A DNA stretch of 64,000 nucleotides. Origin: Parabacteroides sp. AD58 (GTDB lineage Bacteria; Bacteroidota; Bacteroidia; Bacteroidales; Tannerellaceae). The notes beneath the pieces are model-generated. The model did no database searches. It was not told the origin of the DNA and was given only the letters and a program-made list of their open reading frames with translations. Below are positions 232-44,993 of the stretch, one piece after another; within the stretch, counting starts at the first letter, position 1; each line of letters begins with the position of its first letter. The position numbers and the translations under genes were made by a program. Location: NCBI RefSeq assembly GCF_023744375.2, contig NZ_CP146284.1:1240001-1304000 (forward strand), written 5' to 3'.

Positions 232-315
232 ATACGCCAGTTTTTATTCAAAATACGCCGGCTTTTTACTAAAATACGCCAGCTTTTCCATAAAATACGC
301 CGGCTTTTTGGCCCT
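232..315. repeat. Four 21-bp direct repeats between rhaD and rhaT
   Basis: The element ATACGCC begins at 232, 253, 274 and 295, an exact 21-bp step. Each unit continues with AGTTTTT, GGCTTTTT or AGCTTTTCCATAAA, so the copies are close but not identical. The array fills most of the rhaT-rhaD gap. A shadow reading frame through it gives a heptad-like peptide, an artefact of 21 being a multiple of 3. Related repeats with 22-23 bp steps occur in other gaps of the window. Confidence 0.85.
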
Positions 316-9178: not shown

Positions 9179-9250
9179 CAAAAATACAAGTGATATACGT
9201 TAACAACTTTTCTGTAAAGTTCAAATGATTTTTCTCTGAAGCCCAAATGA
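9179..9250 (-). promoter_or_regulatory. SDR operon promoter with 22-bp-spaced direct repeats
   Basis: On the minus strand TATTTTTG (9186-9179) is a -7 box, but no TTTG is found at the -33 place (about 9207-9210). Directly upstream are two direct half-sites, read on the plus strand, TCTGTAAAGTTCAAATGA at 9211 and TCTCTGAAGCCCAAATGA at 9233, 22 bp apart and identical at 13 of 18 positions. This is the arrangement used by AraC-family activators, and such a gene lies next door. Confidence 0.6.
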
Positions 9251-13430: not shown

Positions 13431-13436
13431 TCTTAG

Positions 13437-13508
13437 AGGTTCCTGGCGGATTCGAACCGCCGTAAACGGTTTTGCAGACCGCTGACTAAGCCACTCATCC
13501 AAGGAACC
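13437..13508 (-). tRNA. tRNA-Cys (GCA), distal copy
   Basis: Seven-base-pair acceptor stem GGTTCCT/AGGAACC, anticodon GCA in the loop CTGCAAA, a normal TTCGAAT T-loop and a U discriminator, which is the identity base for cysteine. CCA is not encoded. It appears to be a duplicate of the copy at 13552-13623. Confidence 0.96.
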
Positions 13509-13551
13509 AATTATATTTTAATTTACACAAAAGACTATCACCTCAAACTGG

Positions 13552-13623
13552 AGGTTCCTGGCGGATTCGAACCGCCGTAAACGGTTTTGCAGACCGCTGA
13601 CTAAGCCACTCATCCAAGGAACC
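13552..13623 (-). tRNA. tRNA-Cys (GCA), proximal copy
   Basis: I see no difference in the mature sequence from the distal copy, including anticodon GCA and the U discriminator. The two genes are 43 bp apart and share one promoter and one terminator. Confidence 0.96.
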
Positions 13624-21255: not shown

Positions 21256-21363
21256 GACTTATTATCATTCCGACGGTCGGAGGAAGGATATCCTTCGATC
21301 AGCGGAATAGTTTCCTCCGATCGTCGGAAAGTCATCCTCCGGCTGTAGGAAAGATAATAAGTC
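21256..21363. repeat. Inverted-repeat-bounded array of four 22-bp palindromic units
   Basis: Perfect 11-bp inverted repeats (GACTTATTATC at 21256-21266, complement at 21353-21363) enclose four units whose AGGAA/CGGAA core stands at 21281, 21303, 21325 and 21347, an exact 22-bp step. Single units are near-palindromes such as TTCCTCCGATCGTCGGAA. The whole segment also reads as one long imperfect hairpin. It lies in the 372-bp gap between the CDP-alcohol cluster and holB; nothing else is seen there except the terminator and the holB promoter. Confidence 0.8.
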
Positions 21364-21426
21364 GTCAGTTTGCTGCTAATGCCTCGGCAGACAAGCCTTA
21401 GTCTTCTGCCGGGAAGAACAGACAAG

Positions 21427-26320: not shown

Positions 26321-26327
26321 ATTGCAG

Positions 26328-26402
26328 GGTGAAAGATGGGGCTCGAACCCACGACCCTTGGAACCACAATCCAATGCTCTAACCAACTGAGCTACATTCA
26401 CC
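26328..26402 (-). tRNA. tRNA-His (GTG), distal copy
   Basis: Anticodon GTG in the loop TTGTGGT. The extra 5' G (G-1) is encoded and pairs with C73, the identity pair of tRNA-His. T6-T67 in the acceptor is a mismatch present in both copies. Confidence 0.95.
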
Positions 26403-26435
26403 ATATTAATCTTAAATGAACCTCGCCGCCTGCGG

Positions 26436-26510
26436 GGTGAAAGATGGGGCTCGAACCCACGACCCTTGGAACCACAATCCAATGCTCTAACCAACTGAGC
26501 TACATTCACC
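26436..26510 (-). tRNA. tRNA-His (GTG), proximal copy
   Basis: I see no difference in the mature region from the distal copy, with G-1 and C73. The pair shares a promoter at 26550-26580 and a terminator at 26291-26320. Confidence 0.95.
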
Positions 26511-31466: not shown

Positions 31467-31482
31467 CAAAAAAACACAAAAT

Positions 31483-31526
31483 CATGCCTACCTTTTCCTA
31501 AATTCATGCCAGCCTTTCTACAAAAA
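31483..31526. repeat. Two 22-bp direct repeat units upstream of ffh
   Basis: CATGCC stands at 31483 and 31505, CCTTT at 31491 and 31513, both pairs 22 bp apart. The second unit, with GCCAGCCTTTCTAC, resembles the GCCAGCTTTTCCAT units at 232-315. It lies in the 345-bp gap between ffh and the GLUG gene. Confidence 0.55.
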
Positions 31527-34961: not shown

Positions 34962-35025
34962 AAAGCCCGGCCGGCTTCATCGGCCATGGGATACATCCCA
35001 CGGCAAATGAAACCAGCCGGGCTTT
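34962..35025 (-). terminator. Long hairpin with T-tract just before the HU-like gene
   Basis: On the minus strand AAAGCCCGGC (35025-35016) pairs with GCCGGGCTTT (34971-34962), and the stem continues inward through TTCAT/ATGAA to TGGGAT-GT-ATCCCA, close to 28 bp in all. TTTTTGCGTTTTT follows. It lies 34 bp before the start codon and so inside the leader, if the promoter at 35224-35253 is used. Confidence 0.75.
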
Positions 35026-35050
35026 CGCTCGAACTATTTCTCTATTATAG

Positions 35051-35114
<64 letters not shown>

Positions 35115-35223
35115 ACACAATTATCTCGCACCACCAAATCATTAGCGGTAAAAGATGTTAATCTTCGAGGAATATTTGTGGTATTCAAAAGCGGCATTGT
35201 CATTTTCTTTTTGTTGTCTGTCG

Positions 35224-35253
35224 CAAATATAAGGTTTTATCAGAGAAGGCAAA
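35224..35253 (-). promoter_or_regulatory. Promoter of the HU-like gene
   Basis: On the minus strand TTTG (35253-35250), 18 bp, TATATTTG (35231-35224). The spacing is one base short of usual. Transcripts would cross the GCTT repeat and the long hairpin. Confidence 0.6.
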
Positions 35254-35316
35254 AAAACGAGAGAAAAAATGTGTTCCGAAAAACGGAACTTGCCGGAAAA
35301 AGAAAAGACATAAAAA

Positions 35317-35341
35317 AAGAGGATTCAATGTGAATCCTCTT
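35317..35341 (-). terminator. Terminator of the initiator tRNA
   Basis: An 11-bp perfect stem (AAGAGGATTCA at 35317-35327, complement at 35331-35341) with a 3-nt loop, followed by a T-run on the minus strand. Confidence 0.88.
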
Positions 35342-42420: not shown

Positions 42421-43332
42421 ATGGCAAACCATCACGAACATTCACATCATCACGAGCACCACTTAGTGCCGGCTTCCCTGAACAAAATATTCATCTTTTG
42501 CATCGCGCTTAACTTGCTGTTCGTCATAATCGAAGCTGGCGTCGGATTTATCTACAATTCATTGGGATTACTGTCTGATGCCGGTCACAACCTGAGCGAT
42601 GTATTCAGTCTGCTGCTCGCACTCGTGGCGTTTCGGATGGCAAAGCTCCATGCCACCCATCATTTTACCTATGGATACAAAAAAGCGACCATTCTGATTT
42701 CATTAGCAAATGCCATGATATTGCTGGTTGCCGTAGGTGCCATTCTGATTGAAAGTATTTATAAACTAAAAAACCCTGAGCCAGTATCGGGCGAAGCCAT
42801 CAGCTGGACAGCAGGTATAGGTATTCTCATCAACGGACTGACTACCTGGCTATTGATGCGAGACCGGAAGAAAGACCTGAATGTACAAGGAGCATTTCTC
42901 CACATGATGATGGATACATTGGTTTCCGTAGGAGTTGTAATCTCAGGTATTTTAATCAGTTTCACCGGCTGGAACTGGATTGATTCGATTATCAGTCTGC
43001 TCATTGCCGCAGTCATTCTTATATCTACTTTCGGACTATTGAAAGAAAGTCTCTTCCTTTCTATGGATGCTGTCCCGGCTTCAGTTCATCTGGAAACCAT
43101 CCAGCAGGAAATCGAAGCTCTTCCTCAAGTAAAAAGCTGGCATCACCTGCATATCTGGGGAATCAGTACTACCGAAAATGCGGCCACGGTCCATATTGTT
43201 TTGAACAATATTGCAGAAATGGAGACGGTCAAACCCCGTATCAAGCAGATTTTCAGCTCTGCCGGAATCTCACACAGCACCATCGAGTTTGAATCGGCCT
43301 CCTGCCAGTGCCATGAACAGGAATGCTCATAA
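42421..43332 (+). CDS. Cation diffusion facilitator (zinc efflux)
   Basis: 303 residues. The N-terminus is His-rich (NHHEHSHHHEHH), six membrane segments follow, and the zinc site residues are in GLLSDAGHNLSDVFS (HxxxD) and HMMMDTLVSVG. A C-terminal cytoplasmic domain starts near residue 215 and ends with a CQCHEQECS metal-binding tail. It exports Zn2+ (perhaps Co2+ or Cd2+) in exchange for protons, as CzcD and ZitB do. Confidence 0.92.
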   Translation: MANHHEHSHHHEHHLVPASLNKIFIFCIALNLLFVIIEAGVGFIYNSLGLLSDAGHNLSDVFSLLLALVAFRMAKLHATHHFTYGYKKATILISLANAMILLVAVGAILIESIYKLKNPEPVSGEAISWTAGIGILINGLTTWLLMRDRKKDLNVQGAFLHMMMDTLVSVGVVISGILISFTGWNWIDSIISLLIAAVILISTFGLLKESLFLSMDAVPASVHLETIQQEIEALPQVKSWHHLHIWGISTTENAATVHIVLNNIAEMETVKPRIKQIFSSAGISHSTIEFESASCQCHEQECS

Positions 43333-43350
43333 TTCAATTCTTTCTATATG

Positions 43351-43562
43351 ACCTCTTGATCATAAACTCGTGACTTTCTAATACGAATCTCGTTACTTTT
43401 TAATTGTTTGACAGTAGTCGTAAAGCTTTTCCATATATGTGGTAAAGCTTTTTGACCTATATGAAAAAGCTTTACCACATCTGTCAAACAATTACTTTCT
43501 AACGTGAATCGAATTAATTTCTAATGAGAATTGAATTAATTTCTAACGACAATCTATTTCTG
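43351..43562. repeat. Array of nine to ten 22-bp units with changing sequence theme
   Basis: Units start at 43373, 43395, 43417, 43439, 43461, 43483, 43505, 43527 and 43549, exactly 22 bp apart. Flanking units carry ACTTTCTAA, ACTTTTTAA or AATTTCTAA; the inner ones carry GTCGTAAAGCTTTT, GTGGTAAAGCTTTT and the inverse AAAAAGCTTTACCAC. ATTGTTTGACAG and its complement CTGTCAAACAAT bracket the inner part, giving a long hairpin. The array lies between two convergent genes and could work as their shared terminator. AGCTTTTCCATA also occurs in the 232-315 array. Confidence 0.85.
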
Positions 43563-44993
43563 TTGCCCGTCTTTTCCATCTAAAACTGATACCAATCCCG
43601 GTTCACGCACCTCAGTTCCTTTGGCACGCGTCAGGTTATCGCCTAATTCCTTACGCTTTTCGTCGGCGATCTTCATCAGCTTGACGGCCCGCTCCGGATA
43701 CTGATGCAACACATTGTAACGCTCTCCGGGATCACGACGCAAATCATACAGCTCGCTAGCACGCAGTTCGACCGTTGCCAGGTTACCGGGTTTTCCGTCG
43801 TTGCCCGGGGCATAAGCTCCGTAGGTTACATACTTATGTGGGAAAACCAGTTTAAATTCACCATCGGTAACTGCCTCCAAATCATTCCGATTATAATAAT
43901 ACACAAACGATTCCCGTGGATTTGCCTGTTCATCACCTTCAATCAAAGGCAGGATACTGACACCATCAATCTTCCTGGGAGGTAACGATGCTTCAGCAAT
44001 CTCGGCAAAAGTAGGAAGCAAATCAATGTTCGAGGCCAGTTTGTTGCAAATCGTTCCGGCTTTCGTATGGCCTTTCCAATACATAATACAAGGGACACGG
44101 TTTCCACCGTCGAAAGTTGTGGCCTTAGCTTCCCGCAATCCGCCAGCCGAACCGGCATGATTTCCGTAATTCGCCCACGGACCATTGTCGGAAGTAATGA
44201 CAATCAGTGTCTGTTCTTCCAAACCCAGTTCCTTCACCGTCTTCCAGACTTCACCAATACTCCAGTCTATTTCCATCATCACATCCCCAAAAAGGCCCTG
44301 CTCACTCTTACCTTTAAATTTATCAGATACAGCTAGAGGGACATGAGGCATACTATGTGCCAGGTAAAGAAAGAAAGGCTTATTCTTGTTCTTCCGGATA
44401 AACTGAACGGAACGCGTCGTATAGTCGGTAGTAAAACAGCTTTGGTCTGTATTGTAACCTACCACCTCATTCCCGTCGTAAGTAGGAAGATCCGGGAAAT
44501 TGAATATCTCACCCTGCTGCGGATGAAACGGCCACATGTCATTCGAGTAAGGCAAACCATAATATTCGTCAAAGCCATTCTGTAACGGAAGAAAAGCACG
44601 CTGGCTTCCCAAATGCCATTTTCCGAAGATAGCCGTACTATATCCTTTCTGCTTTAAGACTTCACCCAATGTCATTTCATCCGGATGAATTCCATAATCG
44701 GAATCAGGACCGGGAGCACCTGAAAAGCCAATACGGTTCGGATAGCAACCCGTCAGCAATCCGGCCCGCGAAGCTCCGCTGATAGGCTGGGCAGCCAGGA
44801 AATGCGTAAAGCGGACTCCCTGCGCCGCCAGTAAGTCAATTTGCGGTGTCTTGTAACCATAAGCTCCGTTACAAGAAAAGTCACCGTACCCCACATCATC
44901 CAGATTCACCAGAATAATATTCGTATAATCCGCCGCTAACACTGGTATCATTCCGGCAGAAAGCAACGTACCCAAAAGCCATTTCCTATTCAT
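43554..44993 (-). CDS. Secreted sulfatase (arylsulfatase family)
   Basis: 479 residues. The signal peptide ends near residue 20 (VLAAD). Metal ligands are in VNLDDVGYGD; the formylglycine site is Ser72 in SGASRAGLLTG, a Ser-type motif with Ala in place of the usual Pro, so maturation needs an anaerobic radical-SAM enzyme. YNTDQSCFTTDYTTRSVQFI and ITSDNGPWANYGNHAGSAGGLR are further family marks. It removes sulfate from a host or plant glycan. It stands alone, outside any glycan-use operon. Confidence 0.92.
   Translation of the reverse strand: MNRKWLLGTLLSAGMIPVLAADYTNIILVNLDDVGYGDFSCNGAYGYKTPQIDLLAAQGVRFTHFLAAQPISGASRAGLLTGCYPNRIGFSGAPGPDSDYGIHPDEMTLGEVLKQKGYSTAIFGKWHLGSQRAFLPLQNGFDEYYGLPYSNDMWPFHPQQGEIFNFPDLPTYDGNEVVGYNTDQSCFTTDYTTRSVQFIRKNKNKPFFLYLAHSMPHVPLAVSDKFKGKSEQGLFGDVMMEIDWSIGEVWKTVKELGLEEQTLIVITSDNGPWANYGNHAGSAGGLREAKATTFDGGNRVPCIMYWKGHTKAGTICNKLASNIDLLPTFAEIAEASLPPRKIDGVSILPLIEGDEQANPRESFVYYYNRNDLEAVTDGEFKLVFPHKYVTYGAYAPGNDGKPGNLATVELRASELYDLRRDPGERYNVLHQYPERAVKLMKIADEKRKELGDNLTRAKGTEVREPGLVSVLDGKDGQQK

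What the first reader, a model, noticed from the sequence alone, without database searches (positions are those of the whole stretch)
43351..43562. 22-bp-period array whose sequence theme changes while the period holds
Nine or ten units are placed exactly 22 bp apart, yet two unrelated themes occur (ACTTTCTAA units outside, GTNGTAAAGCTTTT units inside), with the inner part inverted to give a long hairpin. Between the first and last ACTTTCTAA units the phase shifts by 11 bp, one helical turn. A fixed two-turn period with drifting sequence suggests selection or a copying process acting on length: a protein lattice on one DNA face, or template-switch expansion. It is contiguous with no spacers, so not CRISPR.
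Basis: seen in the sequence. Interest (0 to 1): 0.75.

Follow-up and report, generated by a model that had tools for sequence, protein, structure and literature searches.

The report
Dispersed two-turn palindrome lattice elements
The odd repeat is one copy of a family of non-coding elements scattered between genes in bacteria related to Parabacteroides, in which the spacing of small DNA palindromes stays almost fixed while the letters of the palindromes differ between families and species.

Summary
The array is real: 113 of 199 positions match at lag 22, reached in 0 of 1000 shuffles. It is not a one-off but one copy of a dispersed intergenic element with seven short dyads, one every 11 bp: three AAAGCTTT boxes and four A(C/T)ANNT(G/A)T-like boxes. 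The closest held genome, G400 (92% DNA identity over one gene), has 44 copies found, 40 of them exactly 122 long. A letter-free detector of dyads every 11 bp finds 43 clusters in 673 kb of G400, all in these copies; the other periods from 8 to 15 give 0, or 1 at period 14. The same geometry recurs with other letters: three more families in G400, one with a second copy in this window (21256-21372), and more in relatives. At one orthologous site two species carry same-length elements with different letters. An ISAs1-family IS sits in these elements in 10 of 10 paired insertions, across three letter families. Perfect long hairpins are avoided; no terminator pattern; no Y1/RAYT match in G400. Best reading: a REP/BIME-like dispersed element whose conserved property is a lattice of dyads on one DNA face, probably read by a dimeric protein. 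The protein is inferred, not shown.

The parts
43333..43553 (.). Gap between convergent genes (CDF cation exporter 42421-43332 +, sulfatase-like gene 43554-44993 -) that holds the element
   Evidence: ORFs; TIGR01297 over its cut-off for the exporter; for the sulfatase only matches below the models' own cut-offs, best NF010322 arylsulfatase; periodicity
43385..43506 (+). Core element as modelled (122 nt), matching model R1 on both strands
   Evidence: 132.7 bits (+) and 114.9 bits (-), the only two matches in the window at E up to 1; the window copy is one of the 21 model sequences, so it matches by construction
43422..43429 (.). A box 1, AAAGCTTT dyad
   Evidence: Sequence; 41 of 41 at every letter in length-122 copies (40 of G400 and the window)
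43444..43451 (.). A box 2, AAAGCTTT dyad
   Evidence: Sequence; outer six letters 41 of 41, centre G 40 and C 37 of 41
43466..43473 (.). A box 3, AAAGCTTT dyad
   Evidence: Sequence; 40 or 41 of 41 at each letter
43411..43418 (.). B dyad 1 (ACAGTAGT)
   Evidence: Sequence; centre 11 bp before that of A box 1; columns
43433..43440 (.). B dyad 2 (ATATATGT)
   Evidence: Sequence; columns
43455..43462 (.). B dyad 3 (ACCTATAT)
   Evidence: Sequence; columns
43477..43484 (.). B dyad 4 (ACATCTGT)
   Evidence: Sequence; columns
43402..43414 (+). Inner end AATTGTTTGACAG
   Evidence: Conserved in the 21 aligned copies; TTTTTTGAC-type end also seen in several G401 copies
43481..43493 (-). Inner end, inverted copy (CTGTCAAACAATT)
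43373..43394 (+). Left outer 22-bp unit (ACTTTCTAAT...)
   Evidence: a comparable outer unit in G400 copy L061/L126 and, by reading, in some G401/G430 copies
43494..43553 (+). Right outer units, about 2.7 copies of a 22-bp unit
   Evidence: the orthologous G400 contig C55 begins with an ISAs1 IS end 12 bp from the shared AACGACAATC
21256..21372 (.). Second element in the window, another letter family (CCTCCGNNCGGAGG-like dyads at 22 bp, ends CGACTTATTATC / GATAATAAGTCG)
   Evidence: Tandem repeat; G400 ortholog C14:85208 at 81% and five further places at 69-80% (two with E 0.005-0.01); core alignment gapless. Against: it scores only 17/35 with the 11-bp detector, its G400 ortholog 22

Best explanation
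The feature is one copy of a dispersed, non-coding intergenic element about 122-166 bp long. SHOWN by sequence: the core is a lattice of seven short dyads, one per 11 bp (four B and three A boxes, B to B 22 bp), so the dyads lie on about one face of the double helix; tens of copies per genome in G400; several letter families share the geometry; some orthologous copies persist between species; an ISAs1-family transposon sits in elements of three letter families. INFERRED: the lattice is a cooperative docking array for a dimeric DNA-binding protein (an architectural or nucleoid-type protein, or the enzyme that once spread the element). On this reading dyad geometry is selected because neighbouring dimers touch; letters can change as long as all boxes change together (by conversion between copies or by change of the protein); and the IS is drawn to the bound or bent DNA. 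The copies would have spread in the past by transposition or recombination and are now mostly inherited vertically.
For: 44 distinct copies in G400, counted by me from 88 strand matches; 40 of 44 have length 122, one 123, one 144 (+22), two are cut by an IS (119). A rescan of 672,738 bases of G400 around the copies gave the same 88 matches and a break between intact copies (79 bits or more) and the two IS-cut ones (57 or less). A boxes 37-41 of 41 at each letter, box 1 41 of 41 throughout, while columns outside fade to background about 20 nt beyond the modelled 122 nt. Letter-free dyad detector: 43 clusters at period 11, all 43 within R1 copies, 0 in shuffled sequence; the other periods from 8 to 15 give 0, or 1 at period 14. 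Other letter families in G400: ACGATCGT/CACNNNNGTG at 22 places, TTAATTAA/TCACNNNNGTGA at 17 places (two of them halves of one IS-split element), the 21.3-kb type at 6 (counted after merging strands). In relatives: B dyad often GACNNNNGTC, with A boxes such as AAACGTTT, AACGCTTGTT, CAAGCTTG, ACAGCTGT (read). G424: of 18 loci, 14 hold its main family; 13 of these have six dyads with all gaps 22 bp, one has five. Orthologous site L167/L178: 0 gap columns through element and flanks, core 42/79 identical against 459/560 in flanks, all A and B boxes of one family in one species and of another in the other. Inverted word matches within a copy below expectation (21 vs 33.3, P 0.002), direct ones not (21 vs 22.2, P 0.41), in 36 copies. 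IS: 10 of 10 TSD-paired insertions lie in or at the edge of elements of three letter families.
Against: No binding protein was identified and no experiment supports binding. The letter change at an orthologous site rests on one clear case; L174/L176, L225/L179, L240/L231 and L255/L183 keep their letters, and two families could have inserted at the same site. Core identity 0.53 in that case lies within the range of non-orthologous cross-family pairs (mean 0.33, maximum 0.57). Model and detector were developed on G400 copies, and the genome-wide search scored only the 94 best candidates per genome, so weak or decayed copies may be missed. In relatives the detector at 22 or more finds 54 clusters in 77 loci picked by R1: G401 13 in 17 loci, G430 6 in 10, G414 3 in 9, G407 8 in 9, G418 1 in 1, G424 16 in 18, G405 7 in 10, G404 0 in 3. 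Divergent-gap enrichment in G400 (16 of 34, P 1e-4) is not repeated in six other species (13 of 53 placed copies, background 0.40), so no consistent regulatory position is seen.
Confidence: 0.45

Rival explanations
1. A REPIN/MITE-like mobile element: the dyads and ends are signals for a transposase, and the geometry is what that enzyme needs. Copies are parasites or relics without host function.
For: Tens of dispersed intergenic copies; palindromic with inverted ends; several families per genome, as REP families do; BrickBuilt in Porphyromonas gingivalis combines a 23-nt tandem array with MITE ends (PMC4596501: abstract and passages); a RAYT-like subclass (2.6) mostly of Bacteroidetes is flanked by atypical secondary structures with copies elsewhere in the genome (PMC6006769, passages), not compared with this element. 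G401 and G430 have both R1 matches and a PF01797 gene.
Against: PF01797 has no match in 12 of the 14 genomes with R1 matches, G400 among them; none of the 12 PF01797 loci fetched carries an R1 match at E up to 1 (R1 is one letter family, flanks 1.5 kb). Conservation fades outwards without a step and no target duplication of the element was seen; empty sites were not compared.
Confidence: 0.3
2. A mutational by-product: replication slippage or template switching in these genomes prefers steps of about 21-22 bp, and palindromic arrays are its residue.
For: Other intergenic arrays peak at 20-22 bp (2, 6, 5 gaps) and 41-42 bp (4, 2) against about 0.1 in shuffles, 0 at 23-25 bp (333 gaps, 67,340 bases, near elements or in the window); one 22-bp outer unit differs between window and G400; five of six TRF rows in the window have period 21-22, two of which are the elements themselves.
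Against: Dispersed copies of one sequence do not arise by local slippage; dyads every 11 bp and a nearly fixed unit number are not expected; among the arrays four of six at 21 bp, both at 20 bp and two of four at 41 bp share motifs, so fewer independent events stand behind the peak.
Confidence: 0.13
3. An RNA-level element: a bidirectional terminator or mRNA-stabilising hairpin.
For: Convergent position in this window and strong predicted folds on both strands; in G400, 15 of 34 placed copies lie in tandem and 3 in convergent gaps, so about half do follow a gene.
Against: No intrinsic terminator pattern in 43200-43700; no concentration at gene ends: 3 of 34 convergent where gap length predicts 17% (P 0.26) and 16 of 34 divergent; within-copy pairing is lower than between copies (0.681 vs 0.702; 499 of 500 shuffles at least as high); the five Rfam matches in the window are tRNAs.
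Confidence: 0.07

Closest known systems
BrickBuilt MITE of Porphyromonas gingivalis (Klein et al. 2015, PMC4596501; abstract and passages seen)
   Same: Contiguous tandem array with about a two-turn unit (23 nt) inside a dispersed intergenic element with small inverted ends, 19 copies in one strain, same order of bacteria
   Different: BrickBuilt is a minisatellite (18 full repeats in one copy) with leader, tail and ends like GAGACCTTTGCA matching IS5-family IS; here the core has an almost fixed number of dyads, no leader or tail was recognised, and several letter families share one geometry
REP / BIME / REPIN repeats, mainly of Proteobacteria
   Same: Short palindromes dispersed between genes, several families per genome, targets of specific IS elements (PMC1525189, abstract)
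   Different: REPs are 20-40 bp palindromes tagged GTAG or CGTC (PMC3733652, abstract and passages); here 8-10 bp dyads lie on an 11-bp grid, no RAYT is found in G400, and perfect long pairing is avoided
CGTC-tagged REPs, reported also from Bacteroidetes (PMC3733652, passages)
   Same: Dispersed palindromes without a dedicated transposase
   Different: 8-9 bp stem with 4-5 nt loop, mostly head-to-head dimers; no 22-bp lattice in the passages seen
TnpAREP subclass 2.6 of Bacteroidetes and its atypical flanking structures (PMC6006769, passages)
   Same: Bacteroidetes, structured repeats dispersed in the genome
   Different: Defined by an adjacent Y1 transposase gene; none was found in 12 of 14 genomes with R1 matches. 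The structures themselves were not compared
Operators bound cooperatively by ribbon-helix-helix repressors such as Arc or MetJ (recalled, from no call)
   Same: Tandem dyads within about one helical turn, cooperative dimers
   Different: Single operators of a few boxes, not dispersed elements with tens of copies

Membership tests
REPIN / RAYT-mobilised REP | RAYT (Y1 transposase) in the genome | tested here: not met
   PF01797: 0 matches in G400 and in 12 of 14 genomes with R1 matches; present in 8 of 38 genus genomes, including R1-positive G401 and G430. Draft assemblies could miss a gene
REPIN / RAYT-mobilised REP | REP copies flanking the RAYT gene | tested here: not met
   No R1 match at E up to 1 in 12 PF01797 loci; R1 covers one letter family
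MITE | Sharp terminal inverted repeats and target duplication | tested here: inconclusive
   Inverted ends exist but conservation fades without a step; empty sites not compared
MITE | Parent IS with the same ends | not tested
   The one IS studied (ISAs1 family, ends CAGGGCTGACGC) has different ends and sits inside or beside elements
BrickBuilt | 23-nt unit with consensus AGAYCATARTATCCTCTCRTRTG, leader and tail | tested here: not met
   Unit is 22 bp and the letters differ by reading (against the consensus); no alignment was run
CRISPR array | Unique spacers between repeats | tested here: not met
   Units are contiguous
Intrinsic terminator | GC-containing hairpin followed by T run | tested here: not met
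   0 found in 43200-43700, simple pattern scan
Cooperative dimer-binding array | Protein bound in register on the dyads | not testable with these tools
   Geometry fits; binding needs an experiment

The most novel reading that the evidence does not exclude
A geometry code: Parabacteroides-type chromosomes carry several independent sets of landing arrays that share one physical design (a dyad every 11 bp, seven dyads) but use different letters, each set read by its own member of a dimeric protein family. Whole arrays switch letter set at a fixed chromosomal site without a change in length, and an IS family homes to the array by its shape or bound protein rather than by sequence.
Probability: 0.22. 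Interest if true: 0.88.

Novelty: new variant of a known kind. Interest (0 to 1): 0.7.

Why it matters
Dispersed palindromic repeats are common, but their function and upkeep are open questions. Here spacing is conserved far better than letters, several letter families coexist in one genome, and one IS uses three of them as targets. This makes it directly testable whether such repeats are kept for a protein lattice or merely copied, and it suggests a letter-free way (dyads every 11 bp) to look for them elsewhere.

Tried and rejected
Hairpin RNA or terminator: thought unlikely as a general function. RAYT/REPIN: no match in G400 and no linkage in 12 loci. CRISPR: no spacers. A scan for GA(C/T)NNNN(A/G)TC in register three or more times: 0 hits in 672,738 bases of G400, because B boxes vary there; replaced by the letter-free detector. 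Divergent-gap enrichment: seen in G400, not in six other species, and not evident in 6, 7 and 4 placed loci of the other three G400 families (1, 2 and 1 divergent); not used as evidence of function. Letter change for L150/L181 was dropped: only one flanking side aligns; L180/L203 did not align as one gap, and L242/L259 share genes but, from the gene order, not the same gap. The end alignment was four bases out of register on one side and was redone. Paper searches (open-access library only): listings showed no description of this lattice in Parabacteroides; PMC5771137 was seen in passages and adds only BrickBuilt. Rows dropped before counts: five near-duplicate copies (36 of 41 used), 9 of 84 ends with IS sequence, and copies of length other than 122 or 144, copies without a called gene on both sides (34 of 44 counted), two non-colinear pairs. 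Genes in relatives were called by a simple ORF rule of my own, not by an annotation.

Full report
WHAT IS THERE. The gap 43333-43553 lies between a CDF cation exporter (42421-43332, +) and a sulfatase-like gene (43554-44993, -), convergent. Matches at lag 22 are 113 of 199 (z 8.8, 0 of 1000 dinucleotide shuffles); lags 21 and 23 are near background. The inner part is a core of three AAAGCTTT boxes (43422, 43444, 43466) alternating with four looser dyads (43411, 43433, 43455, 43477), hence one dyad every 11 bp. Outside are looser 22-bp units of the ACTTTCTAA type.

IT IS DISPERSED. No whole genome is held for the window. DNA searches led to the genus of G107; the closest held genome is G400, 92% over the sulfatase gene. 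The gap sequence matched many places in G400 and 7 of 38 genus genomes. A covariance model from 21 copies gives 88 strand matches in G400, which I count as 44 distinct copies, and matches in 14 of 38 genomes (only the 94 best candidates per genome were scored). Searching 672,738 bases of G400 around the copies gave the same 88 matches and nothing new; that is about 16% of the genome, chosen around copies. Lengths: 40 of 44 are 122, one 123, one 144, two (119) cut by an IS. Of 58 copies fetched from six relatives (G401, G404, G405, G407, G414, G430), 46 are 122; three are 100 and one 144 (one unit less or more); the other eight are 118-121.

WHAT IS CONSERVED. In 41 aligned copies (40 of G400 and the window) the A boxes have 37-41 of 41 at each letter, box 1 41 of 41 throughout. 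Conservation fades outwards with no sharp edge, to background about 20 nt beyond the modelled stretch. A detector that knows no letters, only seven 10-bp dyads every 11 bp (23 or more of 35 pairs), finds 43 clusters in the G400 sequence, all within R1 copies, none in shuffled sequence; the other periods from 8 to 15 give 0, or 1 at period 14. In 233,626 bases of 33 other fetched loci it finds two: L016 (a GAGGTACCTC array at 22 bp) and L025. In relatives at 22 or more it finds 54 clusters in 77 loci picked by R1, none in the three of G404. In 200,000 bases of Parabacteroides distasonis TSDC17.2-1.1 records there are eight clusters at 21 or more for period 11 and 1-5 for the other periods from 8 to 15; three outside listed genes stand out by eye (L293:5087, L293:26285, L295:8929), so this is suggestive only.

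MANY LETTERS, ONE GEOMETRY. G400 also has a family with ACGATCGT and CACNNNNGTG (22 places), one with TTAATTAA and TCACNNNNGTGA (17 places, some partial and two of them halves of one IS-split element) and one with CCTCCGNNCGGAGG (6 places, two weak), of which the window holds a second copy at 21256-21372. By the detector the ten ACGATCGT-family loci fetched score 25-28 of 35, the third family 22-23 with two loci below 21, the fourth 22-25 in G400 but 17 for the window copy. Relatives carry further families, with a B dyad often GACNNNNGTC (read). In G424, 14 of 18 loci hold its main family; 13 of these have six dyads with all gaps exactly 22, one has five.

HISTORY. Five colinear orthologous pairs were compared. 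Four keep their letters: L225/L179 and L240/L231 with 0 gap columns, L174/L176 with 2, L255/L183 with 86, all outside the core. One, L167 (G401) against L178 (G414), aligns with 0 gap columns from the upstream to the downstream gene, keeps its outer AAAGCTCCCTA, but has AAANNTTT/ACCNNGGT boxes in one species and AACGCTTGTT/ACANNTGT-type boxes in the other; core identity 42/79, outer part 50/83, flanks 459/560. For scale, non-orthologous cross-family pairs average 0.33 with a maximum of 0.57. Beside the ortholog of the window's second element G400 has one extra 22-bp unit while the core is gapless. Two IS-flanked half elements in G400 each occur joined to two different continuations (L145/L205 and L146/L153): recombination between copies, or misassembly.

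THE IS. An ISAs1-family IS (transposase NF033564, 336.5 bits) has 28 end matches in G400, 27 distinct flanks. Ten insertions can be paired by 9-10 bp target duplications (eleven pair rows; two share end C31), and all ten lie in an element or at its edge: eight in the AAAGCTTT family, one in ACGATCGT, one in TTAATTAA (edge cases assigned by reading). Of the unpaired ends, C65a and C26 lie in or at elements, C55 lies at the outer unit of the window's own orthologous locus, C25 and C65b carry TAACGA-type ends and are only probable, C6 shows no element. IS insertion into REPs is known elsewhere (PMC1525189, abstract).

HAIRPIN OR PROTEIN. Complementarity within a copy is lower than between copies for the global hairpin (0.681 against 0.702, 499 of 500 shuffles at least as high; 41 copies, near-duplicates included). 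The six three-letter words next to the A boxes match less often in inverted position than expected (21 vs 33.3, P 0.002) but not in direct position (21 vs 22.2, P 0.41) in 36 copies. So short dyads are kept and perfect long hairpins are avoided; the effect is modest. There is no terminator pattern in the window gap. In G400 placed copies are 16 divergent, 15 tandem and 3 convergent; gap length predicts 18, 65 and 17%, so divergent is in excess (P 1e-4) and convergent is not depleted (P 0.26). In six other species 13 of 53 placed copies are divergent, 30 tandem and 10 convergent against a length-weighted background of 0.40, 0.44 and 0.16; three further copies overlapped an ORF and two could not be placed. 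No consistent position relative to genes results.

OTHER TANDEM ARRAYS. With elements masked, other intergenic DNA (333 gaps, 67,340 bases) has gaps with repeats at lag 20 (2), 21 (6), 22 (5), 41 (4) and 42 (2) against about 0.1 per lag in ten shuffles; other lags from 8 to 60 have 0-2. Some are related: L136, L144, L149 and the window at 246 share a GCCGGC/GCCAGC-TTTT motif, L148 and L165 share TGTTGATAA, L144 and L155 resemble each other. The preference for 20-22 and 41-42 bp is therefore real in this sample but rests on fewer independent arrays.

KNOWN RELATIVES. The nearest described thing that I found is BrickBuilt of Porphyromonas gingivalis, a 23-nt tandem array in a MITE (PMC4596501, abstract and passages); that paper also mentions 22-, 23- and 41-nt tandem repeats in strain W83. 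A Bacteroidetes subclass of TnpAREP has atypical flanking structures (PMC6006769, passages). The element works like a REP/BIME-class repeat but fails the RAYT tests made here, so I do not file it there.

CONCLUSION. The protein lattice is my best reading (0.45), a transposase-defined mobile or relic element is next (0.3), a mutational by-product third (0.13).

Noticed in passing
window 21256-21372: A second element of the same general design in the window, with other letters; its G400 ortholog has one more 22-bp unit just outside the core.
   Followed up: partly
window 232-309, 9208-9250, 31478-31518: Three further 21-22 bp tandem arrays whose letters differ from the element; arrays like the first (GCCGGC/GCCAGC-TTTT, 21 bp) also occur in G400 loci L136, L144 and L149.
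   Followed up: partly
L131:4744, L135:1326, L144:1492, L155:449: Intergenic tandem arrays of 41-bp period in G400, the same length as 41-nt repeats mentioned for P. gingivalis.
   Followed up: no
G400 IS ends (L127, L144-L146, L152, L153, L156, L158, L204-L222): An ISAs1-family IS lies in elements of three letter families, with 9-10 bp target duplications.
   Followed up: yes
L145/L205 and L146/L153: The same IS end plus about 40-70 bp of element is joined to two different continuations: recombination between copies or misassembly.
   Followed up: no
window 35055-35114: Perfect TGCT x 15 tetranucleotide run inside a 115-aa ORF (34986-35333); a possible slippage-prone site.
   Followed up: no
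window 13436-13623 and 26327-26509: Neighbouring pairs of tRNA-Cys and tRNA-His genes.
   Followed up: no
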